Source: Hoeflea sp. YIM 152468 (GTDB lineage Bacteria; Pseudomonadota; Alphaproteobacteria; Rhizobiales; Rhizobiaceae). From it: 64,000 nucleotides of DNA. The position numbers were made by a program, and so were the translations under genes. Shown one piece after another: positions 14,258 to 27,700 of this stretch. Positions within the stretch are counted from its first letter, which is position 1; every line of letters starts with the position of its first letter. The stretch lies in contig NZ_JARGET010000003.1 of NCBI RefSeq assembly GCF_029210485.1, positions 248,001 through 312,000 of the forward strand, written 5' to 3'. The notes beneath the pieces are model-generated. The model was not told where the DNA came from. It ran no database searches and saw only the letters and a program-made list of their open reading frames with translations.

Positions 14258-14264
14258 ATGCTAA
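14245..14264. promoter_or_regulatory. Palindromic operator, gntR promoter (site A)
   Basis: The core CATTCTAGAATG (14249-14260) is a perfect 12 bp palindrome inside CTAACATTCTAGAATGCTAA. Related sequences occur at the aldo/keto reductase-BtpA and binding protein-ATPase divergent promoters. The site covers the putative -10 and the ATG of gntR, so autorepression is likely. Confidence 0.6.
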
Positions 14265-14992
14265 AAAGTGAGAAGAAATTGCTGCAAGAGGCTCCCAAAT
14301 CCCGGCCGGCACTGCCCCCGCTTGATCAATCTGCGGGATCACTGGCGCAGAAGGTTTACGTCTCGCTCAAGCAGGCGATCCTTTCGCTGGCCTTTCGACC
14401 CGGCGAGATCCTGCAGAAATCCGAGATCTGCAGGGAGCTTGGTGTTTCGCGCTCACCGGTGGCCGAGGCTGTGGCGCGATTGTCGGCGGAAGGTCTGGTC
14501 AATGTGATTCCGCAGGCCGGCACCTTCGTCGCGCGATTTTCCATGGCCGAAATACGCGAGGGTGCGTTTTTGCGCGAGGCGCTGGAACTGGCCGCGGTGG
14601 AAGTCGTGGCCGACATCATCACCGAGGAGCAACTGGTGCTGCTCAGGCGCAATCTGAGGGTCCAGGAAGCGCTGATGCAGGACGGTGACACCGCCGGATT
14701 CTATCAGATGGACGCGCAGATGCATGAGTTGATTCTGTCGTTCACCGGTTATCGCCGCCTGGCCGTGCTGGCCGAAACCGCCTGGGTCCACGTCAACCGC
14801 GCGCGCCGTTTGAATTTGCCGGCCCCGGGCCGGATCGAAGCAACACTGGAAGAGCACAAGGCAATCGTCGCCGCGCTGGAGGCCCGTGACCCGGCCGCCG
14901 CGCGCCAGGCGACCCGGCACCATCTCAGTCAGCTGATCACATTTCTCGAGCCGCTGGTCGATCAGCGGCCGGAGCTTTTTGACACTGGTTGA
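14258..14992 (+). CDS. GntR-family regulator, FadR/FCD subgroup
   Basis: A 244-residue regulator. The winged helix (residues 28-90) contains KVYVSLKQAILSLAFRPGEI, then a helix-turn-helix SEICRELGVSRSPVAEAVAR with the family's S-R-S-P-V signature, and the wing EGLVNVIPQAGTFVARFS. The C-terminal all-helical FCD domain has the metal-binding style D and two H residues (MDAQMHELILSF, TRHHLSQLI). Family members release DNA on binding small carboxylates or sugar acids. It heads the carbohydrate island and is the obvious candidate to bind the CATnCTAGnATG palindromes. No good ribosome-binding site precedes ATG 14258; an in-frame TTG at 14279 behind GAGAAG is an alternative start. Confidence 0.9.
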   Translation: MLKSEKKLLQEAPKSRPALPPLDQSAGSLAQKVYVSLKQAILSLAFRPGEILQKSEICRELGVSRSPVAEAVARLSAEGLVNVIPQAGTFVARFSMAEIREGAFLREALELAAVEVVADIITEEQLVLLRRNLRVQEALMQDGDTAGFYQMDAQMHELILSFTGYRRLAVLAETAWVHVNRARRLNLPAPGRIEATLEEHKAIVAALEARDPAAARQATRHHLSQLITFLEPLVDQRPELFDTG

Positions 14993-15034
14993 CCCTGTCC
15001 GTTCTGCTTTCTCCAAAGCCTGCCATTGTCACCC

Positions 15035-15072
15035 TACAGCGCCGTGCACCCGACTGGATGCGCGGCGCTGTA
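15035..15072. terminator. Hairpin between convergent gntR and amidohydrolase genes
   Basis: Fourteen-base arms TACAGCGCCGTGCA and TGCGCGGCGCTGTA pair with one G-U wobble across a 10-base loop. It sits between two convergent genes, the usual place for a bidirectional terminator, but no T tract follows on either strand. Confidence 0.5.
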
Positions 15073-15186
15073 TCCGTTTGACCGCGACATGCCTTCGGCA
15101 GCCCAGGCAGCCGCGGCGCTGCATGTTTCAACGCCGGTGGCCGAAGGTTCCAGCATCACCGCCGGTCAGGCATCAGCGATGCTCGA

Positions 15187-16032
15187 TCAGCCGGAAATCC
15201 GGTAAAATCGAGCGGCGGTTCCGCCATAAATGTCGGCCTTTGCCTGTGCATCAAGATCGTCGGTGAGCGCTTCGGCTGCCGCGCGCCAATCCTGATAGCT
15301 GGCGGCAAGCCGGCAAACCGGCCAGTCAGACCCCCACATCACCCGTGCAGGGCCGAACGTGTCGAGCACGTGATCGACATAGGGTCTGAGGTCTTCGATG
15401 GTCCAGCCGGGTTTGGCTTCGGTGACCAGCGCCGAGAACTTGCAGCAGGCCCCGGTCTGCTGGGCGATCCTGGTCATGCCGTCAGCCCAGAAGCGGAAAT
15501 TGTCGTCCGAATGATCGCGGATCTGCGGCTTCATGCAATGATCGATGACCACCCGCATGTCCGGGTAGCGCTTGAGGATGGTGAGAAAATTGGCCAGATG
15601 CCGGGGAAAACCGAGAGCATCGAAGGTGAGGTCAAGGTCGGCAACGGCGCGGAAGCCCCATTGAACGTCATCGCGCAGCATCCAGTCGTCATCGGCAATG
15701 TCCTGAATCATCGGCCGCACGCCCTTGAATTTCGGGTGCTGCGACAGCCGCTTCAGCGTCGCCAGATCGGATGGCTTTTCGAAATCAATCCAGCCGACGA
15801 CACCGGCGACAAAGGAAGTCGCATCGGCGAGACCCAGCATGTACTCGGTTTCATTGACGCTGGCCGCGGCCTGGACCAGCACTGTCGCGTCAATGCCGTG
15901 CGTATCGAGATGCGGCGCCAGATCGGCGGGCGCGTAATGGCGCGCCAGCGTTGCATTGTCCATCGGCATCCAGTCGTAGTCGCCACGAAGCGGATTCCAG
16001 AAATGCTGGTGTGCGTCGATTTGCATGGTCAT
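15187..16032 (-). CDS. Amidohydrolase family 2 protein, sugar lactonase-like
   Basis: A 281-residue TIM-barrel hydrolase of the COG3618 type (fuconolactonase and related sugar lactonases). Visible motifs are IDAHQHFWNP at the N-terminus (HxH metal site), KGVRPMIQDI in the middle, MRVVIDHCMKP (third His) and ARVMWGSDWPVCR with the catalytic Asp near the C-terminus. Such enzymes open sugar-acid lactones. It follows the aldo/keto reductase gene by 19 bp, and a dehydrogenase-lactonase pair would turn an aldose into its aldonate. The start at 16032 is chosen because the conserved N-terminus begins just after it and a purine-rich site precedes it. Substrate unknown. Confidence 0.85.
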   Translation of the reverse strand: MTMQIDAHQHFWNPLRGDYDWMPMDNATLARHYAPADLAPHLDTHGIDATVLVQAAASVNETEYMLGLADATSFVAGVVGWIDFEKPSDLATLKRLSQHPKFKGVRPMIQDIADDDWMLRDDVQWGFRAVADLDLTFDALGFPRHLANFLTILKRYPDMRVVIDHCMKPQIRDHSDDNFRFWADGMTRIAQQTGACCKFSALVTEAKPGWTIEDLRPYVDHVLDTFGPARVMWGSDWPVCRLAASYQDWRAAAEALTDDLDAQAKADIYGGTAARFYRISG

Positions 16033-16051
16033 GCCCCCATCTCCTGCTGCC

Positions 16052-17086
16052 TCATGCGGGCACTGGCGCATCATCGCGCATCAGTCCATCGGCTTTCAGC
16101 TCCGCCCAAAGCGCCGAAGGAATACTGGCCCGGGCAGCGTCCAGATTGGCCTCCACCTCGGCCACGCCCTGCCCGCCGGGAATCACCGAAACCACGGCCG
16201 GATGGCACAGCGGGAACTGAAAGGCGGCGTCGACCATGCGCACGCCGTGGCGTTTGCAGACGGCATCAATTCTCGCCACCCGGTCCAGAATATGCTGCGG
16301 CGCCGGGTCGTAATTGTAAAATGCGCCGGGTTTGGCGCCGGTCGCCAGCACGCCGGAATTGTAGGGGCCGCCGATGATAATGCCGATGCCGCGCTGCACG
16401 GCCAGCGGCAGGAAACTCTCCAGCGCCTGCTGCTCCAGCAGCGTATAGCGCCCGGCCAGCAGGAACAGATCAAAATCGCCGCGCTCGGCCATGCTCTGAC
16501 ACGGCTGCCATTCATTGACGCCGGCGCCAAAGGCCTTGATCACGCCCTGGTCCCGCAATGACAGCAGCGCCTTGTAGCCGCCGGCCATGAACTCGTCGAG
16601 CTTGGCGTCGAGCGCTTCCTGACTGCCGTGGTTGAATATGTCGAGGTCATGGGCAAACAGGATGTCGATGCTGTCGACGCCGAGCCGCTCGAGCGAAAAC
16701 TCGACCGACCGCATCACCCCGTCATGGGTGTAATCATACACCTCCTTGCGTGCCGGGACTTCAAAGAACTTGCCGATACAGTCGCGTTTCTCGCCCGGCT
16801 CACAACGCCTGAGCAACCGCCCAACCTTGGTTGACAGCACATAGTCATCGCGCGGTTTGTCACGCAAGAAGCGGTTGACCCGGGTCTCTGACAATCCGAG
16901 GCCGTAAAGCGGTGCAGTATCGAAATAGCGCACACCGAGATCCCAGGCTCGGCTCAGCGTCGCATGGGCCTGGTCGTCGCTGATCGCCCGGTAGAGATTG
17001 CCAATCGGAGCGGCGCCAAAACCGAGCTCGGTAAATCTCACTCCGCCATTGCCAATCCGGTCCCAGTGCCGTGTCTTCAATTGCAT
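16052..17086 (-). CDS. Aldo/keto reductase, aldose 1-dehydrogenase-like
   Basis: A 344-residue NAD(P)-dependent oxidoreductase with a TIM-barrel fold. The catalytic tetrad is visible: Asp and Tyr in YFDTAPLYGLGLSE, Lys in VLSTKVGRLL, and His in ILFAHDLDIF. The sequence resembles the L-fucose/D-threo-aldose dehydrogenase and pyridoxal 4-dehydrogenase branch, which oxidises aldoses to lactones. The downstream lactonase supports this. ATG 17086 has GGGAGG five bases upstream; longer starts up to 17161 would cross the operator. It is transcribed away from the BtpA gene under a shared control region. The actual sugar is not determinable here. Confidence 0.85.
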   Translation of the reverse strand: MQLKTRHWDRIGNGGVRFTELGFGAAPIGNLYRAISDDQAHATLSRAWDLGVRYFDTAPLYGLGLSETRVNRFLRDKPRDDYVLSTKVGRLLRRCEPGEKRDCIGKFFEVPARKEVYDYTHDGVMRSVEFSLERLGVDSIDILFAHDLDIFNHGSQEALDAKLDEFMAGGYKALLSLRDQGVIKAFGAGVNEWQPCQSMAERGDFDLFLLAGRYTLLEQQALESFLPLAVQRGIGIIIGGPYNSGVLATGAKPGAFYNYDPAPQHILDRVARIDAVCKRHGVRMVDAAFQFPLCHPAVVSVIPGGQGVAEVEANLDAARASIPSALWAELKADGLMRDDAPVPA

Positions 17087-17102: not shown

Positions 17103-17121
17103 GCTAACATGCTAGTATATT
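17103..17121. promoter_or_regulatory. Palindromic operator, aldo/keto reductase-btpA divergent promoter (site B)
   Basis: GCTAACATGCTAGTATATT repeats the left half of the operator (CTAACATGCT) exactly as in site C and has an imperfect right half (AGTATA instead of AGCATG). On the minus strand it overlaps TATACT, a near-consensus -10 for the aldo/keto reductase gene. Its position between two divergent operons of the island supports regulation by the same GntR protein. Confidence 0.55.
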
Positions 17122-17175
17122 TGCCAAGCGGCTGCATAGCTTTGATTGAGGCTTGCGGCAAATGTGGGGATTGAT

Positions 17176-17988
17176 TTGAGCAAATTCAAGAATGTGTTCG
17201 GACCGGGAAAACCGGTGATCGGAATGGTGCATCTAGGGGCCTTGCCGGGGTCACCGCTGCATGACTACGAGGCGGGCCTCGATGGCCTGGTCACAGCGGC
17301 GAGAGCCGATGTGACGGCGCTGCAAAATGCCGGGTTCGACGCCATCATGTTCGGCAATGAAAATGACCGGCCCTATGAGTTCAAGGTAGACATCGCGTCG
17401 ACCGCCACCATGGCCTATGTCATCGGACAGTTGCGTGGCGAAATCAGGGTTCCCTTCGGCGTCAATGTGCTGTGGGACCCGATCAGCTCGATCGCGCTCG
17501 CTGCCGCGACCGGCGCCGCCTTCGTGCGCGAGATCTTTACAGGATCCTATGCCAGCGACATGGGACCCTGGACGCCCGGTGCGGGCGCGGCGATGCGCTA
17601 TCGCGACCGGATCGGCCGCAAGGATCTGGCGATGCTGTACAATGTCTCGGCCGAGTTCGCAGACAGCCTCGACCGCCGTTCCCTGCCCGACCGGGCGCGC
17701 AGCGCGGTGTTCTCGTCGATACCGGACGCGGTGCTGGTTTCGGGCCAGATCACCGGCGAGGCAGCGGCGATGTCCGATCTCCAGGCTGTCAAGACTGTGC
17801 TGCCGGACACGCCGGTGCTGGCCAATACCGGCGTCAAGCATGCTACCATCGCCGACATACTCAGGGTCGCCGACGGCTGCATCATCGGCTCGGCACTGAA
17901 GATCGACGGCGATACCTGGAAGGCTGTCGACCCCGAGCGGGCGAGTGACCTGATGCAGCGCGCCCGCGCAGCGCGAGGCGGTGCATGA
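17176..17988 (+). CDS. BtpA/SgcQ family TIM-barrel protein
   Basis: A 270-residue protein. The N-terminal run KNVFGPGKPVIGMVHLGALP followed by GSPLHDYE is the BtpA/SgcQ signature. Further conserved blocks are GFDAIMFGNENDRPY, PFGVNVLWDP, and TPVLANTGVKHATI followed by ADGCIIGSALK, a phosphate-binding-like glycine region at the barrel's C-terminal face. E. coli SgcQ lies in a sugar operon of unknown substrate; cyanobacterial BtpA is linked to photosystem I biogenesis. I chose TTG 17176 because the family N-terminus begins there and GGGGA lies 5 bases upstream; GTG 17164 and TTG 17146 are alternatives. The next gene overlaps by 4 bp. Confidence 0.85.
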   Translation: MSKFKNVFGPGKPVIGMVHLGALPGSPLHDYEAGLDGLVTAARADVTALQNAGFDAIMFGNENDRPYEFKVDIASTATMAYVIGQLRGEIRVPFGVNVLWDPISSIALAAATGAAFVREIFTGSYASDMGPWTPGAGAAMRYRDRIGRKDLAMLYNVSAEFADSLDRRSLPDRARSAVFSSIPDAVLVSGQITGEAAAMSDLQAVKTVLPDTPVLANTGVKHATIADILRVADGCIIGSALKIDGDTWKAVDPERASDLMQRARAARGGA

Positions 17989-19082
17989 TGCGGCGGCGTT
18001 TGCGGCAGGATCTGATTGATCTGATGATGACGCCGGGCCTGTCGGGTCATGAGGAGCGGGTCGCCGCGCTGGTTCGCGCGCGCCTGTCGCAAGCTGGCGT
18101 CGCCAGCCGGGTCGACCGGATGGGCAATGTAATCGCCAGTCTCGCGGGCAACCCGGATGCGCCTTCGGTCATGATCTTTACCCATATGGACCAGCTCGGG
18201 TTCTTCGTCCGCAGGATCGAGGCCGACGGATTAATCCGGGTTGAACGCATGGGCGGCGTTTCCGAGCGCGCGATGGCGGCACAGGTCGTCACCCTTTGCA
18301 TCGGCGAAGGCCGCGACGTCACCGGCATCATCATCAACAAGGCGCATCATGCCACCGGACCGGACGAAAAATACAAGGTGGTGACGGCTCCGGATATATT
18401 GATCGACACCGGTCATGGCGACAAAGAGGCGGTCGAAGCCGCCGGTATCCGGATCGGCACGCCGGTTGTCTACCAGTCCCGGGTGATCGAGCTCGCCGGG
18501 GACCGGATCGCAGGTCCGTCCGTCGATGACCGGGCCGGTTGCGCGGCGCTGCTGGAAATCGCCCGCGGTCTCATCGAACGCAGCGGCGGCCCGACCGTGC
18601 ATGTGGTGTTCAGCGTTCAGGAAGAGTTCAATCTGCGCGGCGCGCTGGTGGCGGCGCAGGCGCTCAAGCCGGACATCGCCATCCAGATCGACCTGATGCT
18701 TGCAACCGATACGCCGGATATGGCCGAACGCGGCGAGATGAAGCTCGGCGGCGGCCCCGGCATCAGCCTCTATTCCTTTCACGGCCGCGGCACGCTGAAC
18801 GGCGTCATCCCGCATCCATCGATGGTGACGCTGTTTGAGCAGACTGCAGAACGGCTCGGCATGCCGCTGCAACGCTCGGCCCAGGTCGGTGTGCTGACAG
18901 ATTTGTCCTACGTGCAACTGGTCGGCGAAGGCGTGGCGTCGATCGATATCGGCTTTCCCATGCGGCACTCGCACTCGACGGTCGAATGCTGCGATCTCGC
19001 CGACGTCGAAGCCATGGCCAAACTGGCGCTCGCCGCCATCAGCGGCATCGGCGCCGATTTCAAGCTGACCCGGGAGATCTGA
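17985..19082 (+). CDS. M42 family metallopeptidase-like hydrolase (FrvX/SgcX type)
   Basis: A 365-residue protein of the M42 aminopeptidase/endoglucanase family. All expected metal and catalytic residues are visible: IFTHMDQLGFFVRRIE (first His and Asp), GPSVDDRAGCAALLEI (bridging Asp), VVFSVQEEFNLRGALVAAQA (Glu-Glu), IQIDLML (Asp) and MRHSHSTVECCDL (last His). Annotated members cleave N-terminal residues from peptides, but homologues FrvX and SgcX sit in sugar operons, as this one does, so its real substrate here may be a glycoconjugate or acylated sugar. It overlaps the BtpA stop (ATGA) and is followed by the kinase after 4 bp. Confidence 0.85.
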   Translation: MMRRRLRQDLIDLMMTPGLSGHEERVAALVRARLSQAGVASRVDRMGNVIASLAGNPDAPSVMIFTHMDQLGFFVRRIEADGLIRVERMGGVSERAMAAQVVTLCIGEGRDVTGIIINKAHHATGPDEKYKVVTAPDILIDTGHGDKEAVEAAGIRIGTPVVYQSRVIELAGDRIAGPSVDDRAGCAALLEIARGLIERSGGPTVHVVFSVQEEFNLRGALVAAQALKPDIAIQIDLMLATDTPDMAERGEMKLGGGPGISLYSFHGRGTLNGVIPHPSMVTLFEQTAERLGMPLQRSAQVGVLTDLSYVQLVGEGVASIDIGFPMRHSHSTVECCDLADVEAMAKLALAAISGIGADFKLTREI

Positions 19083-19086: not shown

Positions 19087-20580
19087 ATGGGGTTCACGCT
19101 GGGAATCGACATCGGCACATTCGAATCCAAGGGCGTCCTGGTGGAAGACGGCGGCCGCATTGTCGCGCAAGCCTCTTGCAGCCATGAATTGATCGTGCCG
19201 AGGCCGGGATGGGCCGAGCACCGCGCCGAGCAGGATTGGTGGAGCGACTTTGTCACCATCACCCGCGGATTGCTCGGCGACAGCGGCATCGACCCCCCGG
19301 AGATACGGGCTGTGGCCACCTCGGCGATCGGTCCGTGCATGCTGCCGGTGGACCGCGACGGCGCGCCGCTGATCAATGCCGTGCTTTACGGTGTCGATAC
19401 CCGCGCCGGCGACGAGATCGCCGACCTCAACCAGGCCATCGGCGAGGCGACAATCCTCACGCGTTGCGGCAACGCGCTGACCGCGCAATCGGTCGGCCCG
19501 AAAATACTCTGGTTCAGACGCAATCATCCCGAGCTTTGGGCCAGGACCGGAAAAATTCTGTCGTCGACCAGTTACCTGACCTTCAAGCTGACCGGAGAAC
19601 AGGTGATTGATCATTACACGGCGGCGAGTTTCTCACCGCTCTACGACATCGCCAGACAGGACTGGTGTTTCGATCTGGCTGATATCTGTGCGCCGGAATT
19701 GCTGCCCAAACTGATGTGGTCGACAGAAATCGCCGGTCATGTACAGGAGAGTGCGGCTGCCGAGACAGGTCTTGCCGCGGGAACGCCGGTGATCTGCGGC
19801 ACCATCGACGCGGCGGCGGAGGCGGTCAGCGTTGGCGTCAACGCCCCCGGCGACATGATGATGATGTACGGATCGACGATCTTCATCATCTTGCTGTCGG
19901 ACACAGCCTTGTCGGACGCGCGGCTGTGGCATGCGCCGTGGCTTTTTCCTGGCCAACATGCGGCCATGGCAGGGCTTGCCACTTCGGGCACCCTGACACA
20001 CTGGTTCCGCGACCAGTTCGCCAGCGAGCTGCCGCGCGACAGCGCCTTTGCCATGCTCACCAGGGAGGCGGACGCTTCGCCGCCGGGCGCCAAGGGGCTC
20101 CTCTGCCTGCCCTATTTCTCCGGCGAACGCACGCCAATCCACGACAGCCATGCCAAGGGATGTTTCTTCGGGCTCGATCTCACGCATAATCGGGGCGACA
20201 TGTACCGCGCGGTGCTGGAGGGTATTGCCGCGGCCACGCGGCATATCGCCGACACCTATGCCGAGGCCGGGCGGCGTCCGGCCCGCGTGCTGGCGGTGGG
20301 CGGCGGCACCCGGAACCGCCCCTGGCTGCAGGCCACCTCTGACATTACCGGACTTGACCAAATCGTCTGCGAGGTGACCACCGGGGCCTCCTATGGTGAC
20401 GCATTCCTGGCCTCGCTGGCTGTCGGAAGCGCTGAGCCGGGCGACATTACAACATGGAACCCGGGCGCCAGAACGATCAAGGCCGAGCGCCATGTCGCCT
20501 ATGAGCGGCAATATCCGTTGTTTCTGAAGCTCTATGAGCAGACCCGCGACATCATGGCAGCGCTGGATAAAGGCCGATGA
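19087..20580 (+). CDS. FGGY-family carbohydrate kinase (xylulokinase-like)
   Basis: A 497-residue sugar kinase. The N-terminal ATPase motif is TLGIDIGTFESKGVLVEDGG, the connecting region contains ICGTIDAAAEAVSVGVNAPG with the probable catalytic Asp, and the C-terminal domain carries FSGERTPIHDSHAKG and the second phosphate motif VLAVGGGTRNRPWLQATSDI. FGGY kinases phosphorylate ketoses, polyols or similar open-chain sugars; xylulokinase-like members dominate the similarity I recognise. It overlaps the SIS gene by ATGA, so kinase and isomerase are translationally coupled, which suggests consecutive steps. Confidence 0.88.
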   Translation: MGFTLGIDIGTFESKGVLVEDGGRIVAQASCSHELIVPRPGWAEHRAEQDWWSDFVTITRGLLGDSGIDPPEIRAVATSAIGPCMLPVDRDGAPLINAVLYGVDTRAGDEIADLNQAIGEATILTRCGNALTAQSVGPKILWFRRNHPELWARTGKILSSTSYLTFKLTGEQVIDHYTAASFSPLYDIARQDWCFDLADICAPELLPKLMWSTEIAGHVQESAAAETGLAAGTPVICGTIDAAAEAVSVGVNAPGDMMMMYGSTIFIILLSDTALSDARLWHAPWLFPGQHAAMAGLATSGTLTHWFRDQFASELPRDSAFAMLTREADASPPGAKGLLCLPYFSGERTPIHDSHAKGCFFGLDLTHNRGDMYRAVLEGIAAATRHIADTYAEAGRRPARVLAVGGGTRNRPWLQATSDITGLDQIVCEVTTGASYGDAFLASLAVGSAEPGDITTWNPGARTIKAERHVAYERQYPLFLKLYEQTRDIMAALDKGR

Positions 20581-21122
20581 CCCAGTTCCGGGAAGCACTG
20601 CTGGAAATCGGCATGGTGGTCGAAGCCATCAAGCCGCAGGATATCGAGCGGGCGACGGCGTTGATCGCTGCCGCCAAAACCATTGTCGCCTATGGCTGCG
20701 GTCGAGAGGCGTTGCAGGTCAGGGGGCTGACGATGCGGCTCTTCCACCTGGGCCTGAGCGTTTCGATGCAAGGCGACATGACGACACCGCCGCTGGGACC
20801 GGGCGACTTGTTTTTGTGTTCCGCCGGGCCGGGCGAGCTCGCAACGGTTACAGCCTTGATGCGCGTGGCCAGGGATGCCGGAGCGAAGACCCTGTTTCTG
20901 ACCGCCGAACCTGACTGCGAGGCAGCAGGCCTTGCCGATCTGGTGGTTGAAATTCCGGCGCAAACGATGTCCCGGGACATTGGCGGCGGCTCGATCCTGC
21001 CGATGGGATCGGTCTACGAGGGCGCGCTGTTCCTGCTGTTCGAGATCATGGTTCTCCGGCTGAAGGACCAGCTTGGCGAAACCACCGAGAGCATGCGGGC
21101 ACGCCACACCAATATGGAGTGA
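20577..21122 (+). CDS. SIS-domain isomerase, 6-phospho-3-hexuloisomerase (HxlB)-like
   Basis: A 181-residue single SIS domain. It follows the HxlB pattern: IVAYGCGREALQVRGLTMRL, then MRLFHLGLSVSMQGDMTTPP, the phosphate-binding LFLCSAGPGELATV (SGSGET in typical HxlB), ILPMGSVYEGALFLLFEIMV, and a C-terminal ESMRARHTNME close to the family ending RHANLE. HxlB interconverts 3-hexulose 6-phosphate and fructose 6-phosphate. There is no 3-hexulose-6-phosphate synthase here, so the enzyme probably acts on a phosphate made by the upstream kinase. The altered SAGPGE loop hints at a changed substrate. It is the last gene of this unit, followed by the convergent permease gene. Confidence 0.8.
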   Translation: MTQFREALLEIGMVVEAIKPQDIERATALIAAAKTIVAYGCGREALQVRGLTMRLFHLGLSVSMQGDMTTPPLGPGDLFLCSAGPGELATVTALMRVARDAGAKTLFLTAEPDCEAAGLADLVVEIPAQTMSRDIGGGSILPMGSVYEGALFLLFEIMVLRLKDQLGETTESMRARHTNME

Positions 21123-21160: not shown

Positions 21161-22078
21161 CTATTTCACCGCGCCTGCGGCCATTCCCTTGATGATAAAG
21201 CGCTCAAGCACGATCCCTATGACGATCAGCGGCACGATCGCGGCAAAGGAGAGAGCCGCCATCGACCACCAGCTGATGCCCTGACTGCCTGTCTGGCTCG
21301 CCACCATCACCGGCAGCGTGTTGGCATGGGTCGAGGTCAGGAGCGCGGCAAAAAAATACTCGTTCCAGGTCAGCACAAGCGAAAGAATGAAAGCTGCGAC
21401 CATGCCCGGAAGGGCGATCGGCAGGACGATGGTGGCAAAGGCGCCCCAGATCGACAGCCCGTCAACCAGCGCCGCTTCTTCCAGTTCCTTGGGAATGCCG
21501 GCGAACTGGTCGCGCATGATCCAGATGACGATCGGCAGCACGGTGAGCGTGTAAAGCAGGATCAGGCCGATGCGGGTATCAAGCAACGCCAGGGATTTGT
21601 AGAGCACCAGAAATGGCAGCGCCAGCACCACCGGCGGCAGGATCAGCTGGCTGAGAAAAAAGAAGGAGATATCCGAATTGCGCATAAAGCCGAAGCGATA
21701 GGAAAACCGCGACAACCCGTAGGCTGCCAGCGACCCCAGACCCACCGCCAGCGCCGAGGCCGAAAGCGCGGTGATCACCGAATTGTAGAAGCGTTTGACG
21801 AATTCGTCGCGCACGGTGGAGTCAGCCCAGATCGTATCCGGCGAAAGCCCGAGTGACCGCCAGCCAAGCCATTTGGGCTGGTAGTCCCAGAACGGGATCA
21901 GATTCCCCCGCATCACGTCGGGGGCCATTTTGAACGAGGTGGTGATGGTCCAGTAGATCGGGAACAGACAGATGATCGCCCACAATATCAGCGCGGCATA
22001 AACCGCAACCCGGCCTGAGAACCATTTGGCCTTGTGCGCGAAGTCATCGGGGCTGTCATAAAAGATCTGCTGGCTCAT
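21161..22078 (-). CDS. Carbohydrate ABC transporter permease (MalG type)
   Basis: A 305-residue inner-membrane permease with six predicted helices. The N-terminus has ALILWAIICLFPIYWTITTS; the cytoplasmic EAA loop is PKELEEAALVDGLSIWGAFA followed by IVLPIALPGM, which docks to the ATPase. This is the CUT1 second-permease pattern. It begins 21 bp after the first permease gene and shares its operon with the binding protein. It transports the unknown island sugar across the inner membrane together with its partner permease. Confidence 0.92.
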   Translation of the reverse strand: MSQQIFYDSPDDFAHKAKWFSGRVAVYAALILWAIICLFPIYWTITTSFKMAPDVMRGNLIPFWDYQPKWLGWRSLGLSPDTIWADSTVRDEFVKRFYNSVITALSASALAVGLGSLAAYGLSRFSYRFGFMRNSDISFFFLSQLILPPVVLALPFLVLYKSLALLDTRIGLILLYTLTVLPIVIWIMRDQFAGIPKELEEAALVDGLSIWGAFATIVLPIALPGMVAAFILSLVLTWNEYFFAALLTSTHANTLPVMVASQTGSQGISWWSMAALSFAAIVPLIVIGIVLERFIIKGMAAGAVK

Positions 22079-22099: not shown

Positions 22100-23206
22100 T
22101 CAGTATCGCGGCCGCGCCCAGCGGTCGGTCAGTTTCATGAGCAACGTGATCGCAATCACGATGACCACCAGATAGACCATCGCCAAGAGCGTGCCGTAGC
22201 CGACATTGGAGCGGTCGCGATATTCGCGGAAGATGAAACTGGTGACGCTGTCGGTGGCCCCGCCGGGGCCTCCGGACGTCACATTGATGATGATGTCGGC
22301 AAGCTTGAGCTTGAAGATGACACGGATCAGGATCACCGTGATCGAGACCGGCAGCATCAGCGGAAATGTGACTTCCCAAAATCCGCGCCAGGCGCGGGCG
22401 CCATCGACCTTGGCCGCCTCCTGAATGTCCTTGGGAATAGCCTGCAGGCCGGCCAGGATCATGATCATCATGAAAGGTATGTAGGTCCAGGCGTCCATCA
22501 CCATGATGGTGAAACGCGCCATCTCCGGTGAGCCGAAAAACGATGGCGACTCCCAGCCCAGCTCACGCGCCAGCCGCGCCAGGGGGCCGAAACGGACTTC
22601 CATCATCGACTTGCCGATCATCCAGCTGACCGCCACCGGCGACAGCATCAGCGGCATCAAGAAGGCCACCCGGAAAAACTTGCGGGCGCGGATTTGCGAA
22701 TTCAGCAGCAGCGCCAGTCCGAATGCAATGGCGTATTCGACGATGATGGCGAGCGAGTAGCGCACCATGTTGGCGAGCGCGTTCCAGTAGAAATCATCGG
22801 TCCACATCTGACGGATATTATCAAGACCGTTGAAGGTGCGCCCGGTCGGCGAGGACAGGTTCCAGTCCGAAAACGCAATCACAAGTCCGAACAGCAGCGG
22901 AAACACCACCATCGATATCACGAACAGCGCCGCAGGCAGCACAAACAGAACCCGCTTGCCCCGCTCGCCGCGGATCAGCACCTGACCCCAGCACAGACAA
23001 ATTGCCCACAGCACATAGGCATACAGCGTCGGCCGCCAGGTCGAGAAGCCGAAAACGACGTGACCGGTTTCCTGCAAGGTTTGCGCGAGCGCGATCACGG
23101 CCAGGAACCCGGCAGAGCCCCAGATCATGGCCCGACCGATCGCCATCCTCCGGCCGGAGAGATTGTCGGTGGTGACAACGTGAAGGTAATCGCCTTGCTC
23201 GACCAA
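22100..23206 (-). CDS. Carbohydrate ABC transporter permease (MalF type)
   Basis: A roughly 368-residue CUT1 permease. Two hydrophobic segments at the N-terminus (GSAGFLAVIALAQTLQ and TLYAYVLWAICLCWGQVLI) precede the usual six-helix core. The EAA loop is AIPKDIQEAAKVDGARAWRG, followed by FWEVTFPLMLPVS. The start is uncertain: TTG 23206 is my choice; TTG 23230 overlaps the T tract of a terminator and ATG 23146 has GGAGG directly abutting it. The extra N-terminal helices resemble a subgroup of sugar permeases found with large TAT-exported binding proteins. Confidence 0.88.
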   Translation of the reverse strand: MVEQGDYLHVVTTDNLSGRRMAIGRAMIWGSAGFLAVIALAQTLQETGHVVFGFSTWRPTLYAYVLWAICLCWGQVLIRGERGKRVLFVLPAALFVISMVVFPLLFGLVIAFSDWNLSSPTGRTFNGLDNIRQMWTDDFYWNALANMVRYSLAIIVEYAIAFGLALLLNSQIRARKFFRVAFLMPLMLSPVAVSWMIGKSMMEVRFGPLARLARELGWESPSFFGSPEMARFTIMVMDAWTYIPFMMIMILAGLQAIPKDIQEAAKVDGARAWRGFWEVTFPLMLPVSITVILIRVIFKLKLADIIINVTSGGPGGATDSVTSFIFREYRDRSNVGYGTLLAMVYLVVIVIAITLLMKLTDRWARPRY

Positions 23207-23277: not shown

Positions 23278-24939
23278 TTACATGCCCAGCGACGCCTTGT
23301 AGAGCGCGATCTGGCTTTCCCGGCCGATCTGGTCGGTGATCTTCTCCCAGGCCGCCGCAATGGCATCAGCGGTTTCCTGAGCGGAGCCATACTGACCGGC
23401 AAAGCCCTTGGCCAGTTCATCCTCGGCCACCGAGTAGTACTGGAAGATGCCGGGAATACGCGGTTCAATCGCCGAATTGGGGTGATTGTAGCTGTCGGCG
23501 TTGGAGCCGAGATAATCCTCGACGAAGGCCCGGTCATAGCCGGCAGCTTCCCACTCCTCGTAGTTGAAGTGGCTGTTGCGGTAAGGCTGGAAGCCGGAGG
23601 GATAGGCCGAAGTCCACAGCGAAAGATCCTTGCCGCCGAGATGTGCGGCTGCTGACCAGGCGGCCTTGTGCTTCTTCTCGTCGCCATCGACCCGGGCCAT
23701 CACGTAAACGCCCCAGCCGATATAGGCCATGTTGGGCGCCTCGTTGGCTGTGGCTTCCCACTCACCGGTTTTGGAGTTGTAGACCTCATCGGAGCCCGGC
23801 AGGATGCCGAAGCTGACCACATCACCCACCACCGAGGTGTCGGAGGTGCGCGCCGAGGAGCCAACATCACCCCACCAGGCAATCGACGAGCCGGAGCCGG
23901 CAAGGAACTGCGAGAACGCCGTCGTCCCCGGATCGGCATTGATCTGGTCGGCCGGATAGGCGCCGTCGACCGCGATCAGATCCATCACTTCCTGGATGGC
24001 GCGGACGAAGGCCGGGTTGTTGACCCGCGGCTTCATGGTGTCGGAATCAAACAGCCACGCCGGATCATCGGGATGTTTGGCGTAAGCGGTGGCGCGGTCT
24101 TCAAGGAAATAGAAGCCGAAGCCGCCCCAGCCCTTGAGCGGGTCGAGGAATCCGTGCGCCTCAAGCCCGGTGAGCGGGTCCTTCTTGCCGGCGAGGAATT
24201 TCGAATGTGCCTGCACATCCTTCCAGGTCTTGGGCGGGGCCCAGTCGCCTTCTCCGCCCGCGTCTTTCCAGGCCGCAGCGAACTCCTCGTTTTCGTAGTA
24301 ATCCTTGCGGTAGGCGAAGGTGTGGCAATCGCCATCGATCGAGATCCGGTAGGTCTTGCCGTCCCAGGTGCCGACCGGCGCCTTGAGGTAACCGACATAG
24401 TCGTCCATGTCGATCTGGGCCTTGACCCAGTCCGGCATTTCCGATGCCAGCCCCTTGCCACAGACGTCGCCTTCGAACGGTGCGCCCATCTCGATGATGT
24501 CAAAATCCACCGTGCCGGTGGCAATCGACTGTTGCAGACGGGCATTGTAATCGGCCTGGGCCAGGTCGATCCAGTTGATCTTGGCGCCGGTGTAGGCTTC
24601 CCAGGGCTTCAGGAAACCACGGAACAGGAAGTTGTGAAGGTTCTGGTTGTTCAGCCCCATGAAAGTCAGCTCAACGCCTTCGAATTCTCCTTCGGCGACA
24701 CTGGCCTTGGTGGCCGCCAGGCACATCTCGCCGACCTTCTGCCAATCAGCATCGGTCGGCGATCCGGCGCCGACGCCCGGAATTTTCAGGATCGCGGCGC
24801 GCACATCATCCTGCGCAGCAGCGGTTTTCACGCCAAGTCCGCCCATGGCGGCCATTCCACCGACCGCGGCAGCGCCTTGCAGCAGCCGGCGTCGGCTCAT
24901 GGCCACCCTGACTGCATGTTCAAACAGTTCAACTTTCAT
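23278..24939 (-). CDS. Extracellular sugar-binding protein, TAT-type signal, family 1-like
   Basis: A 553-residue solute-binding protein, larger than the usual 400-450 residues. The N-terminus carries a twin-arginine signal (AMSRRRLLQGAAAVGG at residues 13-28) ending in TAAAQ, so it folds in the cytoplasm before export. Type I binding-protein features include LTFMGLNNQNLHNFLFRGFL, TAFSQFLAGSGSSIAWWGDV and an aromatic-rich middle. ATG 24939 has GGAGGTGTT upstream; longer starts would cover the promoter. It is the first gene of the permease operon and divergent from the ATPase gene. The ligand is unknown. Confidence 0.88.
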   Translation of the reverse strand: MKVELFEHAVRVAMSRRRLLQGAAAVGGMAAMGGLGVKTAAAQDDVRAAILKIPGVGAGSPTDADWQKVGEMCLAATKASVAEGEFEGVELTFMGLNNQNLHNFLFRGFLKPWEAYTGAKINWIDLAQADYNARLQQSIATGTVDFDIIEMGAPFEGDVCGKGLASEMPDWVKAQIDMDDYVGYLKAPVGTWDGKTYRISIDGDCHTFAYRKDYYENEEFAAAWKDAGGEGDWAPPKTWKDVQAHSKFLAGKKDPLTGLEAHGFLDPLKGWGGFGFYFLEDRATAYAKHPDDPAWLFDSDTMKPRVNNPAFVRAIQEVMDLIAVDGAYPADQINADPGTTAFSQFLAGSGSSIAWWGDVGSSARTSDTSVVGDVVSFGILPGSDEVYNSKTGEWEATANEAPNMAYIGWGVYVMARVDGDEKKHKAAWSAAAHLGGKDLSLWTSAYPSGFQPYRNSHFNYEEWEAAGYDRAFVEDYLGSNADSYNHPNSAIEPRIPGIFQYYSVAEDELAKGFAGQYGSAQETADAIAAAWEKITDQIGRESQIALYKASLGM

Positions 24940-25101
24940 GTAACACCTCCCTAGCGTTATCCGCTCCTCATGCGGTCCGGACCAGGGAGGCAATCCGACC
25001 ATTGTTTGGTCGTTGAACGCCTTGATCTTCCCAACGGCCGGGTCCGGAACAACCGGACAGACAGAAAACATTTCACCCTCCAGAGACGCTGTCAAGCGCC
25101 T

Positions 25102-25118
25102 AACATGCTAGCATGACT
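25102..25118. promoter_or_regulatory. Palindromic operator, binding protein-ATPase divergent promoter (site C)
   Basis: The core CATGCTAGCATG (25104-25115) is a perfect 12 bp palindrome within CTAACATGCTAGCATGACTAG. It lies between the leftward binding-protein gene and the rightward ATPase gene, directly beside a minus-strand TTGACA (25095-25090). It matches sites A and B and is the best copy of the presumed GntR operator. Confidence 0.65.
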
Positions 25119-25188: not shown

Positions 25189-26253
25189 ATGGCAGACGTT
25201 AGGATCGAGAAACTCTACAAGGCCTACGGGTCAGTGGAAGTCATCCATGGCGTCGATGTAGACATCCCCGATGGCAGGTTTGTCGTGCTGGTCGGACCCT
25301 CCGGATGCGGCAAGTCAACCCTGCTCAGAATGATTGCAGGGCTTGAGGGCATTTCGGCAGGCTCGATCAGCATTGGCGGCCATGTGGTCAACAACCTACC
25401 GCCGGCCGAGCGCAACATCGCCATGGTGTTTCAGAATTACGCGCTGTACCCGCACAAAACCGTTGCGGCCAACATGGGATTTGCGCTCAAAATGCAGCGT
25501 ATGCCAAAGGCAGAAATCGACGCACGCGTTGACACTGCAGCCGAAATTCTTGGGCTCAAACCCTATCTCGACCGCTATCCGCGCGAGCTCTCCGGCGGCC
25601 AGCGTCAGCGCGTGGCCATGGGACGGGCGATCGTGCGGGAACCGAAAGTATTCCTGTTTGACGAGCCGCTGTCCAATCTTGACGCCAAACTCAGGGTGCA
25701 GATGCGCGCCGAAATTCGCGAATTGCACCAGCGGCTGTCGACCACCACGGTCTATGTGACCCACGACCAGATTGAAGCCATGACCATGGCAGATCAGATC
25801 GTGGTGATGCGGGACGGCCATATCTCGCAACAAGGCGCGCCGCTGGATCTTTATGACCAGCCAGCCAACGTGTTCGTCGCCGGCTTCATCGGCTCGCCGT
25901 CGATGAATCTGATCGAAGGCGTTGTCTCCCGCGACGGCGGATCGCTGAGGCTGGACGCGCAGGGCGTATCACTGGCCGCACCGGATCGCGCCGGGATGGA
26001 AGAGGGCCGCAAGGTTGTCTTCGGCATCAGGCCAGAGCATCTCGAACTCGATGAAACCGGCTTTGAGGCAAAGGTCGCGGTGGTCGAGCCCACCGGATCG
26101 GAAACCCATCTGGTGCTCCGGGCTGCAGGCCGGGACATCATCGCCGTGTTCCGAGAGCGCCACGCCTTCCGGCCGGGCGATACGATCCGGTTGAAACCAC
26201 GCCCGGAGATGGTGCACATGTTTGACGCAGAAAGCGGACTACGGCTGGATTGA
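25189..26253 (+). CDS. Carbohydrate ABC transporter ATP-binding protein (MsmK/UgpC type)
   Basis: A 354-residue ATPase. Walker A is VGPSGCGKSTLLRMIAGLEG, the Q-loop lies in MVFQNYALYPHKTV, the signature motif is LSGGQRQRVAMGRAI, Walker B is VFLFDEPLSNLDAKLR, and the H-loop is VYVTHDQIEAM. The C-terminal TOBE/regulatory domain (about residues 240-354) is present and ends PRPEMVHMFDAESGLRLD. It energises the two permeases encoded on the opposite strand. It is first in a rightward unit with the mutarotase and PfkB kinase. Confidence 0.94.
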   Translation: MADVRIEKLYKAYGSVEVIHGVDVDIPDGRFVVLVGPSGCGKSTLLRMIAGLEGISAGSISIGGHVVNNLPPAERNIAMVFQNYALYPHKTVAANMGFALKMQRMPKAEIDARVDTAAEILGLKPYLDRYPRELSGGQRQRVAMGRAIVREPKVFLFDEPLSNLDAKLRVQMRAEIRELHQRLSTTTVYVTHDQIEAMTMADQIVVMRDGHISQQGAPLDLYDQPANVFVAGFIGSPSMNLIEGVVSRDGGSLRLDAQGVSLAAPDRAGMEEGRKVVFGIRPEHLELDETGFEAKVAVVEPTGSETHLVLRAAGRDIIAVFRERHAFRPGDTIRLKPRPEMVHMFDAESGLRLD

Positions 26254-26316
26254 CCCAACCGGCGCAGCAAACCGGCAAAGCCGGCGCCCGGGAAGAAAAG
26301 CACGAAGGAGGATTGC

Positions 26317-26769
26317 ATGCTCAAGGGACTGGACCCGCGATTGAACGCCGAGGTGCTCTACGCGCTTCGCGCCATGGGCCATGGCGATACGCTGATTGTC
26401 GCCGACACCAATTTTCCGTCCGATTCCATCGCCCGGCAGACTGTCGTCGGCGATCTTCTGCGGATGGACAATCTGACGGCGGCGGAAGCCGTCGAGGCCA
26501 TCCTTTCGGTGCTGCCGCTCGACACTTTTGTCGATGACTTTGCAGGCCGCATGGAGATCGTCGGCAATCCCGGGGAAATTCCCCCGGTGCAAGCGGAAGT
26601 CCAGACCGCGATCGATGCGGCCGAAGGTCAGCCGCGCCCGATGGTCAGCATTGAACGCTTCGCCTTTTACGATCTGGCCAAACAGGCCTATGCAGTGATC
26701 CAGACAGGAGAACGACGGTTCTATGGCTGTTTCATGTTGCGCAAGGGCGTCATCCCGCCGGAAGGGTAG
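26317..26769 (+). CDS. RbsD/FucU family sugar mutarotase
   Basis: A 150-residue protein of the RbsD/FucU fold, which interconverts anomers of free sugars. The active-site region reads RAMGHGDTLIVADTNFPSDS, with the conserved His-Gly-Asp and a second Asp; the usual Asp-Ala-His/Asn after it is Asp-Thr-Asn. The C-terminal AFYDLAKQAYAVIQTGERRF contains the Tyr and the final conserved Y-G-C. The FucU branch is favoured over RbsD by length and by the presence of an aldose dehydrogenase and lactonase in the island. A strong AAGGAGG precedes the ATG, and the kinase gene follows after 10 bp. Confidence 0.88.
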   Translation: MLKGLDPRLNAEVLYALRAMGHGDTLIVADTNFPSDSIARQTVVGDLLRMDNLTAAEAVEAILSVLPLDTFVDDFAGRMEIVGNPGEIPPVQAEVQTAIDAAEGQPRPMVSIERFAFYDLAKQAYAVIQTGERRFYGCFMLRKGVIPPEG

Positions 26770-26779
26770 AGGCAGCACC

Positions 26780-27700
26780 ATGACAAATGTGGTCATTCTC
26801 GGCGTTTTCGTTGCCGACACAGCCTACCGTGCCGCCCGTGCCCCACAGATGGGCGAAACCATCATGGGCGAGAGTTTCAAGCTGGGGCCCGGCGGCAAGG
26901 GATCCAACCAGGCCGTGGCTTCGGCCAGAGCCGGGGCCGAAACCCACTTCATAACCCGGCTTGGGCGCGACACCTTTGCCGAAATGGCGCTCAAGACCTG
27001 GGCGGATGCGGGCGTCACGCCTGCGGTCACCCAGCATGATGACGGCTACACCGGTGCTGCCTACATCTTTATCGAGGCGGCAACCGGCAACAATGCGATT
27101 ATTGTCTGTCCCGGCGTGGCCGGCTCGATTTCCCCGACCGACATTGTTGCGCACAGCGATCTGATCGGACAGGCCACGGTATTCGTCACCCAGCTCGAAC
27201 AGCCGATGGATGCGGCAATGCAGGCCCTGCAAATCGCCCGGACCGGCGGTGCAATAACCATTCTCAATCCGGCGCCCGCGGCCACCCTGCCCGACGGCAT
27301 GCTGGCGCTGTGCGATTACCTGACCCCCAACGAAACCGAAGCCGAAGCCCTGACCGGCATCGCTGTGACCAGCCTCGAAGACGCCACCGTGGCGGCATCG
27401 GCGTTGACCCGAATGGGGGCCCGGGCGGTGGTCGTCACACTGGGCGAAAAGGGTGCGCTTTACCATGCCAATGGAAAGAGCGTTCACGTGCCGGCTTTCA
27501 ATGCCGGCCCGGTGGTCGAAACCACCGGCGCCGGCGATGCCTTCAACGGCGGCTTCGCGGCGGCGCTGGCCTCCGGCATGGATCCGGCCGGCGCCGTCAG
27601 GTTCGGCTGTGCCACTGCCTCGATTTCGGTCACCCGGCCAGGCACGGCCCCCTCGATGCCGTCGCTCACCGAGATAACCGAGCTTCTGGCGCGCCAGTGA
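26780..27700 (+). CDS. PfkB-family carbohydrate kinase (ribokinase-like)
   Basis: A 306-residue ribokinase-family enzyme. The substrate-binding start is GESFKLGPGGKGSNQAVASA, the mid region contains LNPAPAATLPDG and LTPNETEAEALTG, and the C-terminal ATP-site and catalytic base are ETTGAGDAFNGGFAAALASG. The family phosphorylates ribose and related sugars at a primary hydroxyl. The start at 26780 begins the conserved core; an upstream in-frame start overlaps the mutarotase gene. It is the second sugar kinase of the island, so the imported substrate may be split into two branches or the enzymes act on successive intermediates. Confidence 0.92.
   Translation: MTNVVILGVFVADTAYRAARAPQMGETIMGESFKLGPGGKGSNQAVASARAGAETHFITRLGRDTFAEMALKTWADAGVTPAVTQHDDGYTGAAYIFIEAATGNNAIIVCPGVAGSISPTDIVAHSDLIGQATVFVTQLEQPMDAAMQALQIARTGGAITILNPAPAATLPDGMLALCDYLTPNETEAEALTGIAVTSLEDATVAASALTRMGARAVVVTLGEKGALYHANGKSVHVPAFNAGPVVETTGAGDAFNGGFAAALASGMDPAGAVRFGCATASISVTRPGTAPSMPSLTEITELLARQ

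What the first reader, a model, noticed from the sequence alone, without database searches (positions are those of the whole stretch)
14258..27700. Unassigned sugar pathway: BtpA/SgcQ, M42 hydrolase, FGGY kinase and HxlB-like isomerase with an aldose oxidation branch
The island combines an aldo/keto reductase and lactonase (aldose to aldonate) with a translationally coupled kinase and 3-hexuloisomerase-like protein, a BtpA/SgcQ barrel of unknown chemistry, an M42 hydrolase, a FucU-type mutarotase, a second kinase and its own ABC importer. I know no described pathway with this set. No aldonate dehydratase or hexulose phosphate synthase is present, so the substrate may be an unusual hexulose, branched or conjugated sugar.
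Basis: partly seen in the sequence, partly recalled or inferred. Interest (0 to 1): 0.75.

Follow-up and report, generated by a model that had tools for sequence, protein, structure and literature searches.

The report
Sugar regulon with cryptic sgc enzymes
A rhizobial genome carries a self-regulated sugar-use island that joins a known aldose-oxidation route to an uncharacterised enzyme pair also found in the unsolved sgc operon of E. coli, here with its own kinase and importer, which makes that old puzzle testable.

Summary
The island looks like one regulon: TAACATGCTAGYATG (≤2 mismatches) has three sites in the 4.27-Mb genome, at the start of the island's own GntR gene and in its two divergent promoters. 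Two arms:

(1) Oxidative arm: AKR, fuconolactonase-like amidohydrolase and a FucU-family protein fit the described non-phosphorylative L-fucose/D-arabinose route. The "missing" dehydratase, diketo-hydrolase and SDR lie elsewhere in the genome. In some relatives these families sit beside the island.

(2) Core trio: BtpA, M42, FGGY, in that order in 70 of 73 evaluable relatives. BtpA and M42 are homologues of E. coli SgcQ (46%) and SgcX (37%, with a shared motif absent from FrvX/YpdE). The function of sgc was unknown in July 2026 (PMC13343008, passages). An importer plus FGGY kinase replaces its PTS, so SgcQ/SgcX probably act on a phosphorylated sugar.

The HxlB-like gene is optional (16 of 43 relatives) and below the HxlB cut-off. 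Substrate and SgcQ/SgcX chemistry remain unknown. My searches found no description of the whole set; the oxidation branch, however, is not unassigned.

The parts
14246..14260 (+). operator-like palindrome (TAACATTCTAGAATG) at the start of the GntR gene
   Evidence: (2 mismatches; one of 3 sites in the genome); the change is symmetric, so the site is still a palindrome
14258..14992 (+). GntR/FCD transcription regulator, probable local repressor
   Evidence: Pfam GntR 9.8e-18, FCD 1.4e-26; orthologue co-occurs with the motif in relatives
15187..16032 (-). amidohydrolase_2, fuconolactonase-like
   Evidence: NCBIfam L-fucono-1,5-lactonase 218 bits, cut-off 400; best PDB match 4dlf
16052..17086 (-). 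aldo/keto reductase, probable aldose 1-dehydrogenase (ORF opens at 17161; probable start 17086 behind GGGAGG)
   Evidence: best PDB matches are L-galactose dehydrogenases
17105..17119 (+). operator-like palindrome TAACATGCTAGTATA between AKR and BtpA
17164..17988 (+). BtpA/SgcQ-family TIM barrel (ORF opens at 17146; start 17164 or 17176)
   Evidence: TIGR00259 247 bits, cut-off 153; 46% to E. coli SgcQ; AF2 model pLDDT 87
17985..19082 (+). M42 metallohydrolase of SgcX type
   Evidence: Pfam 3.9e-74; 37% to SgcX and shared QEEFN(L/I)RG and HGRGT motifs; aligns to M42 structures over conserved motifs
19087..20580 (+). FGGY carbohydrate kinase, xylulokinase-like
   Evidence: XylB model 293.7 bits, cut-off 380
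20577..21122 (+). SIS-domain (HxlB-like) isomerase, overlapping FGGY by 4 bp
   Evidence: 137 bits to HxlB, cut-off 160
21161..22078 (-). ABC permease
22100..23206 (-). ABC permease
23278..24939 (-). extracellular solute-binding protein (start MKVEL behind GGAGGTG)
   Evidence: SBP_bac_1 2.9e-6; no PDB sequence match at E 0.01
25101..25115 (+). operator-like palindrome TAACATGCTAGCATG between binding protein and ATPase
25189..26253 (+). ABC transporter ATPase (MalK type)
26317..26769 (+). RbsD/FucU-family mutarotase
   Evidence: Pfam 1.4e-36; best PDB 2ob5 (Atu2016) 6.7e-65
26780..27700 (+). PfkB kinase, ribokinase equivalog
   Evidence: TIGR02152 302.9 bits, cut-off 299.65; best PDB ribokinases

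Best explanation
The island is a single sugar-catabolic regulon with two arms.

Shown by sequence: its own FCD-type GntR gene, the divergent AKR|BtpA promoter and the divergent binding-protein|ATPase promoter carry the only three sites (TAACATGCTAGYATG, up to 2 mismatches) in the genome.

Inferred order. The ABC importer brings in a free sugar, and FucU interconverts its anomers. Oxidative arm: AKR oxidises a D-arabino-configured aldose (L-fucose, D-arabinose or L-galactose type) at C1, and the amidohydrolase opens the lactone. Dehydratase, SDR and FAH hydrolase encoded elsewhere in this genome then finish it to pyruvate plus lactate or glycolate, a described route. Phosphorylating arm: FGGY phosphorylates a ketose-type sugar. 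The phosphorylated product is worked on by the SgcQ-type TIM barrel (BtpA) and the SgcX-type M42 hydrolase, optionally helped by the SIS isomerase. PfkB phosphorylates the furanose form of a pentose-like sugar.

The SgcQ-SgcX pair is the same as in the E. coli sgc operon, where PTS uptake takes the place of importer plus kinase. The common intermediate is therefore most likely a sugar phosphate. I take SgcQ as an epimerase or aldolase on that phosphate and SgcX as the hydrolase of an attached or resulting acyl group. These two last assignments are inference only.
For: One regulon: exact ATRCTAGYAT occurs twice in the 64-kb window (0.04 expected by a first-order model), at the two divergent promoters. 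The longer motif has three sites in the whole genome, all in the island. In 80 relatives there are 24 exact copies against 1.03 expected: 16 lie 25-77 bp before the BtpA match, 4 at the importer, 2 before GntR, 2 about 1.4 kb beyond the FAH gene (counted). Motif and GntR orthologue co-occur: 16 both, 7 GntR only, 1 motif only, 37 neither, of 61; Fisher p 1.8e-8, not corrected for kinship.

Trio: in order and on one strand in 70 of 73 evaluable loci. In a class sample, FGGY lies within 1.2 kb of 14 of 19 BtpA genes, the window's own among them.

SgcQ/SgcX: 46% and 37% identity, shared motifs, and a 100/99 branch separating SgcX plus island from FrvX/YpdE.

Oxidative arm: the nearest solved AKRs are L-galactose dehydrogenases. 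UxaA-type dehydratase is present in 13 of 43 loci, always with AKR. Orthologues of the later enzymes are in this genome. Watanabe 2019 (PMC6336799, passages and sections 3 and 13) characterised a COG0667 AKR active on D-arabinose, L-fucose and L-galactose and a UxaA-family D-arabinonate dehydratase.

Phosphate substrate: BtpA is predicted to fold as a TIM barrel whose listed structural neighbours are largely phosphate-handling enzymes; kinase adjacency; PTS in sgc.
Against: The off-island dehydratase and FAH/SDR genes carry no copy of the palindrome, so in this genome the oxidative arm is not shown to be co-regulated to its end. The reversed control pattern also had 3 matches in the genome: the positions, not the number, carry the argument. 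Lactonase (218 of 400 bits), FucU (86 of 141) and XylB (294 of 380) fall below the NCBIfam cut-offs, so the substrates are not fixed. PMC11199699 (passages) names FucU in the phosphorylating L-fucose route and a separately named FucM in the non-phosphorylating one, so FucU is not specific evidence for the oxidative arm. BtpA also occurs with FGGY and SDR without M42, so the two need not be consecutive steps. Devosia-type loci have importer, FucU and trio without AKR. FrvX and YpdE, relatives of SgcX, are annotated peptidases, and a peptide-like substrate is not excluded. PMC13343008 reads SgcX as a possible extracellular hydrolase and sgc as possibly pentitol-related, hypotheses that differ from mine (passages). 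Foldseek matches to BtpA are generic (query TM 0.52-0.63 for the 50 rows listed).
Confidence: 0.57

Rival explanations
1. The island serves a single imported conjugate (for example an acylated or amide-linked sugar). The M42 hydrolase frees two moieties, one oxidised as an aldose by AKR and lactonase, the other phosphorylated by FGGY and handled by BtpA.
For: All three promoters share one operator-like site. Metallohydrolases and esterases recur: M42, a creatininase-family protein in 14 of 43 relatives, a GDSL esterase family in five of the 80 loci. M42 motifs of known aminopeptidases are kept.
Against: AKR is absent from 15 of 43 full-flank relatives that keep BtpA. Nitratireductor-type loci carry the trio with a ribose-type importer and no AKR (L149 has only a 25% AKR-family match). 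In E. coli the PTS would have to import the conjugate already phosphorylated.
Confidence: 0.2
2. The trio is an ordinary phosphorylating route for a rare ketose or pentose (isomerase, kinase, epimerase or aldolase), and M42 is a housekeeping peptidase carried along.
For: FGGY, SIS, PfkB and AP_endonuc_2-type isomerases are standard kit. DhaK/DhaL-type genes (Nitratireductor type) and a DeoC-family aldolase (L171) appear in variant operons, pointing to triose or short-chain products.
Against: M42 lies between BtpA and FGGY in 70 of 73 loci. Among 18 alphaproteobacterial genomes with BtpA, M42 is found full length in only 3, in 2 of them inside the trio; a truncated M42 match also follows BtpA at a contig end in G422 (L178). 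The SgcX-type motif is shared with E. coli SgcX.
Confidence: 0.2
3. RuMP-like chemistry: the HxlB-like SIS protein makes a 3-hexulose phosphate and BtpA replaces HxlA, releasing formaldehyde and ribulose 5-phosphate.
For: SIS is HxlB-like (137 bits) and overlaps FGGY; BtpA shares the barrel fold of phosphate-handling enzymes.
Against: SIS is missing from 27 of 43 relatives that keep BtpA and scores under the HxlB cut-off; no obvious formaldehyde-oxidising gene among the conserved neighbour families that I ran through Pfam, which are only part of those listed.
Confidence: 0.05

Closest known systems
Escherichia coli K-12 sgc operon (sgcR, E, A, Q, C, B, X; KpLE2)
   Same: SgcQ (46% identity) and SgcX (37%, shared QEEFN(I/L)RG and HGRGT motifs) are encoded in one operon; a PTS suggests a phosphorylated substrate
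   Different: sgc uses a PTS and an RPE-type epimerase (SgcE); the island uses an ABC importer, FGGY kinase, SIS protein and an aldose-oxidation arm. In sgc two genes separate sgcQ and sgcX. sgc function is itself unknown (PMC13343008, passages read)
Non-phosphorylative L-fucose / D-arabinose pathway, route III
   Same: Mutarotase-family protein, aldose 1-dehydrogenase and lactonase candidates on the island; UxaA-type dehydratase, SDR and FAH hydrolase in the genome and beside the island in some relatives
   Different: The words BtpA, SgcQ, FGGY and M42 do not occur in the main text of PMC6336799 or PMC11199699 (term searches); later steps are off-island here
BtpA-FGGY-SDR-ABC clusters with DeoR (Salipiger, R. 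leguminosarum, Thermus, Labrenzia, Shinella)
   Same: BtpA in a cluster with an FGGY kinase and a sugar importer
   Different: No M42 annotated; a polyol-type SDR and in three of the five a HAD phosphatase instead; BtpA about 53-69% identical to the island's
Ribulose monophosphate HxlAB pair
   Same: SIS-fold isomerase resembling HxlB
   Different: Below HxlB cut-off; no HxlA among the island genes

Membership tests
Non-phosphorylative L-fucose/D-arabinose route III | aldose 1-dehydrogenase of AKR type | tested here: inconclusive
   AKR present, nearest PDB L-galactose dehydrogenase; substrate not assayed
Non-phosphorylative L-fucose/D-arabinose route III | fuconolactonase-type amidohydrolase | tested here: inconclusive
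   right family, 218 bits under cut-off 400; best PDB 4dlf, which I recall as the L-fucono-1,5-lactonase of Hobbs 2013 (paper not held)
Non-phosphorylative L-fucose/D-arabinose route III | L-fucose mutarotase of this route (FucM) | tested here: inconclusive
   a RbsD/FucU-family protein is present, under the FucU cut-off; FucM itself was not compared
Non-phosphorylative L-fucose/D-arabinose route III | aldonate dehydratase in the genome | tested here: met
   UxaA-type protein 78% identical to that of L099 at G000:C14:103532-105034
Non-phosphorylative L-fucose/D-arabinose route III | SDR and 2,4-diketo hydrolase (FAH) in the genome | tested here: met
   proteins 60% and 73% identical to the relatives' at G000:C23 about 318-321 kb; FAH scores 418 bits against the rhamnonate-type hydrolase cut-off of 500
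Non-phosphorylative L-fucose/D-arabinose route III | growth on and induction by L-fucose or D-arabinose | not testable with these tools
   needs culture
sgc-type system | SgcQ and SgcX homologues in one operon | tested here: met
   for homology; adjacent and overlapping by 4 bp here; in K-12 separated by sgcC and sgcB
sgc-type system | PTS components SgcA/B/C | tested here: not met
   no PTS domain among the 13 island genes
sgc-type system | RPE-type epimerase SgcE | tested here: not met
   no such domain among the 13 island genes; none of them hits SgcE by blastp at E 0.001
RuMP HxlA/HxlB | HxlB above family cut-off | tested here: not met
   137.2 bits, cut-off 160
RuMP HxlA/HxlB | HxlA present | tested here: not met
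   none among the 13 island genes; the rest of the genome was not searched for it
M42 peptidase | metal-site and catalytic motifs | tested here: met
   HMDQLG, DDRAG and QEE read in the sequence and aligned to a solved M42 protein; assignment of motifs to metal ligands is recalled
M42 peptidase | aminopeptidase activity | not testable with these tools
   needs assay

The most novel reading that the evidence does not exclude
SgcQ (BtpA) and SgcX (M42) form an unrecognised two-enzyme module of sugar-phosphate catabolism: a TIM-barrel enzyme plus a metallohydrolase that has left peptide hydrolysis. The module is plugged behind different phosphorylating front ends (PTS in E. coli, FGGY kinase plus ABC importer in alphaproteobacteria) and degrades a sugar or sugar conjugate for which no pathway is known.
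Probability: 0.5. Interest if true: 0.8.

Novelty: new variant of a known kind. Interest (0 to 1): 0.55.

Why it matters
BtpA has no significant sequence match among PDB chains (best E 0.23). E. [quoted passage not shown] This island supplies what sgc lacks: a dedicated importer with a binding protein for ligand screens, a kinase whose substrate can be assayed, a single regulator with a candidate operator whose inducer can be found, and an adjoining oxidation arm that narrows the candidate sugars to D-arabino-configured aldoses. Solving it would assign two uncharacterised enzyme groups at once.

Tried and rejected
Considered and rejected:
- Kinase–HxlB pair as the core: SIS is optional, in 16 of 43 loci, and is in other contexts elsewhere.
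- RuMP formaldehyde chemistry: no HxlA on the island.
- A branched sugar argued from the absent dehydratase: dehydratases exist in the genome.
- Creatininase-family protein as a stand-in for SIS: the two co-occur freely (6 both, 10 SIS only, 8 creatininase only, 19 neither).
- A riboswitch: no Rfam match at gathering threshold in 13000-29000.

Led nowhere: Foldseek of BtpA gave only generic barrels. Paper searches on Atu2015-Atu2020 (neighbours of the FucU best match by number) gave only two toxin papers. The FGGY/BtpA search listed two unrelated papers; the RB-TnSeq/arabinose and HxlB/arabitol/Dak searches listed none. An own-genome search for the relatives' AP_endonuc_2 isomerase found nothing. 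The creatininase-family protein had only a weak, distant match there.

Gene-content counts use tblastn at ≥40% identity; only 43 of 80 loci had both flanks (≥20,700 bases). The script printed 58 trios because it demanded gaps above zero; the recount that allows touching genes gives 70 of 73 (7 loci set aside as too close to a contig end). In 6 of the 70 (L133-L135, L141, L142, L149) a permease gene lies between BtpA and M42. The exceptions are L102, L106 (no FGGY hit) and L145 (no M42). L043, from the SIS-based set, has BtpA and M42 but no FGGY hit.

Full report
WHAT IS THERE. Thirteen genes fill 14258-27700. In order: GntR/FCD regulator; on the minus strand an AKR followed by an Amidohydro_2 protein; divergently BtpA–M42–FGGY–SIS; on the minus strand a large binding protein and two permeases; divergently the ABC ATPase, FucU and a PfkB kinase. 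BtpA/M42 and FGGY/SIS overlap by 4 bp. Of the 10 island proteins scanned with NCBIfam, only BtpA (subfamily model) and PfkB (ribokinase) pass a curated cut-off; XylB, fuconolactonase, FucU and HxlB models are hit below cut-off. Family placement is therefore sound and substrate names are not. The window lies in a 4.27-Mb genome of a family that includes Sinorhizobium sp. BG8 (same coordinates); the M42 tree puts the window among Hoeflea. ARAGORN found no tRNA in the window, and base composition is even, 0.58-0.63 G+C in 4-kb steps.

ONE REGULON. Comparing AKR|BtpA intergenic sequences of relatives showed a palindrome. Exact ATRCTAGYAT occurs twice in the window against 0.04 expected, at 17109 and 25105, in the two divergent promoters. 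At up to one mismatch the window count (4) is not unusual: 17 of 100 shuffles reach it. The longer TAACATGCTAGYATG at up to two mismatches has three sites in the whole genome: window 25101 (0 mismatches), 17105 (1) and 14246 (2), the last at the start of the GntR gene. The tool's reversed control pattern also had 3 matches in that genome, so the number alone is not remarkable; the position of all three in the three promoters is. In the 80 relatives 24 exact copies were found in 17 loci against 1.03 expected. Sixteen lie 25-77 bp before the BtpA match, 4 at the importer, 2 before GntR and 2 about 1.4 kb beyond the FAH gene (counted). One further exact copy, in the wider set, is in L174 and unexplained. 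Among 61 relatives with at least 5 kb upstream, motif and GntR orthologue co-occur (16 both, 7 GntR only, 1 motif only, 37 neither; p 1.8e-8, kinship not corrected). The off-island dehydratase and FAH/SDR stretches have no copy even at one mismatch.

OXIDATIVE ARM. AKR's closest solved structures are L-galactose dehydrogenases (plant enzymes, as I recall). Of 43 relatives with both 10-kb flanks, 28 carry the AKR, 22 the lactonase (never without AKR), 13 a UxaA-type dehydratase (never without AKR), 7 an SDR and 5 an FAH hydrolase. This is the gene set of the non-phosphorylative L-fucose/D-arabinose route as described by Watanabe and co-workers. In PMC6336799 (passages, and sections 3 and 13 in full) a UxaA-family enzyme is a D-arabinonate dehydratase with weak L-fuconate activity, and a COG0667 AKR oxidises D-arabinose, L-fucose and L-galactose. 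PMC11199699 (passages) lays out mutarotase (there called FucM; FucU is named in the phosphorylating route), dehydrogenase, lactonase, dehydratase, 4-dehydrogenase and hydrolase. In the window's own genome the UxaA-type gene (78%) is on another contig. SDR (60%), FAH (73%), enolase-type and IlvD-type dehydratases and a DHDPS-type aldolase lie 36-46 kb to the right of the island.

CORE TRIO. BtpA, M42 and FGGY follow in this order on one strand in 70 of 73 loci with room to judge; in 6 of these a permease gene lies between BtpA and M42 (7 loci set aside at contig ends). A class sample gave 19 BtpA genes above cut-off in 18 of 385 genomes, the window's genome among them. Fourteen of the 19 have an FGGY gene within 1.2 kb. 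The exceptions are G422 and G536 (short contigs), G320, G326 and a second copy in G361. M42 is full length in only 3 of the 18 genomes, inside the trio in G000 and G470 and beside FGGY in G361; two more genomes have 47-residue fragments, and G422 has a truncated M42 match behind BtpA at a contig end (L178). In the family sample BtpA has a match in 67 of 199 genomes but in neither of the two same-genus genomes.

LINK TO sgc. The island BtpA is 46% identical to E. coli SgcQ over 267 residues, and M42 is 37% identical to SgcX, against 28% to FrvX and 31% to YpdE. The HGRG[TS] motif is in all 48 island-type M42 sequences examined (47 relatives of 71 listed, and the window) and in SgcX, and in neither FrvX nor YpdE. 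The QEE motif could be read in only part of the rows by the pattern used (12 of 51 rows had no match). The tree puts SgcX with the island proteins at 100/99, but the three E. coli branches are very long, SgcX falls inside the island rows, and its exact place is unsure. A July 2026 paper states that the substrate and functions of sgcABCEQX remain to be established and that deletions had no growth defect; it offers a pentitol link as a working model (PMC13343008, passages). Since sgc has a PTS where the island has an importer and FGGY, the parsimonious reading is that SgcQ and SgcX act on a phosphorylated sugar. BtpA has no PDB relative by sequence (best E 0.23). Its AF2 model (pLDDT 87, pTM 0.89) is a TIM barrel whose Foldseek neighbours include KDPGal aldolase, indole-glycerol-phosphate synthase, phosphoribosylanthranilate isomerase, TrpA, ribulose-phosphate 3-epimerase and thiamin phosphate synthase, besides dihydropteroate synthases, one of which ranks first. 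Seventy-five positions are invariant across eight sequences of island type, SDR type and SgcQ, and 22 when three distant ones are added.

VARIANTS THAT BEAR ON FUNCTION. (a) BtpA–FGGY with SDR, DeoR and CUT1 importer, in three of five plasmid cases with a HAD phosphatase, without M42 (similar in several class loci). This ties BtpA to the kinase product and suggests ketoses from polyols. (b) Nitratireductor, Aquamicrobium and Mangrovicella: DeoR, BtpA, permease, M42, FGGY, ribose-type importer, then DhaK- and DhaL-type proteins in 6 of 6 (DeoR family counted in 5), hinting at dihydroxyacetone or a tetrulose. (c) L171: DeoC-family aldolase and ALDH in the same operon. (d) SIS without the trio: of 33 family regions fetched around SIS, 7 have BtpA and M42 and 6 of these also FGGY; 12 have importer permeases and binding protein, FucU and PfkB, one of them (L070) without an ATPase hit (counted). 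Other SIS relatives sit with Dak kinase, AP_endonuc_2 isomerase, RpiB and TpiA types, or with FGGY and class II aldolase.

VERDICT. A real, conserved and accessory regulon. One arm is known chemistry. The other carries an enzyme pair for which I found no assigned function in the searches named above. The set is new as a combination; the most valuable point is the link to sgc. I claim no substrate.

Noticed in passing
G000:C23 about 312-322 kb (L167:3017-12840), from the right edge of the window outwards: A second aldonate-type cluster: IlvD/EDD dehydratase, DHDPS-type aldolase, a GntR-like hit, two FAH-family proteins, enolase-superfamily dehydratase, SDR, Gfo/Idh oxidoreductase.
   Followed up: partly
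G000:C14:103532-105034 (L168:9512-11038): The UxaA-type dehydratase sits beside genes that look like an ABC operon with two ATPases and a 578-aa protein, an arrangement that I recall from the rhizobial glycerol transporter; only one ATPase was run through Pfam.
   Followed up: no
L196 (E. coli K-12 4523000-4535000): sgcR-X lies next to yjhI-yjhH-yjhG (pentonate aldolase and D-xylonate dehydratase), again SgcQ/SgcX near an aldonate pathway; RefSeq names SgcQ 'putative nucleoside triphosphatase', which its TIM-barrel relatives do not support.
   Followed up: partly
L133, L134, L135, L141, L142, L149: BtpA, M42 and FGGY with a ribose-type importer and DhaK/DhaL-type kinase genes; may be the simplest form of the pathway for biochemistry.
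   Followed up: partly
   Followed up: partly
L080, L081 (Pantoea and Klebsiella plasmids): HxlB-annotated SIS genes beside galactitol-type PTS, rpe and SDR, without an hxlA among the annotated features; the HxlB name there may be wrong.
   Followed up: no
L052, L053, L055, L064: Close SIS relatives with a fused Dak kinase and CUT2-type importer, in L052 also an AP_endonuc_2 isomerase and in L055 RpiB and TpiA types: looks like tetritol or tetrulose use.
   Followed up: partly
window 27914-29218 and 29385-33220: MHYT-LytTR regulator and molybdopterin dehydrogenase genes follow the island directly. No exact operator copy there; a 1-mismatch match lies at 27959, inside the longest ORF of the regulator but before the start that my gene caller chose.
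   Followed up: no
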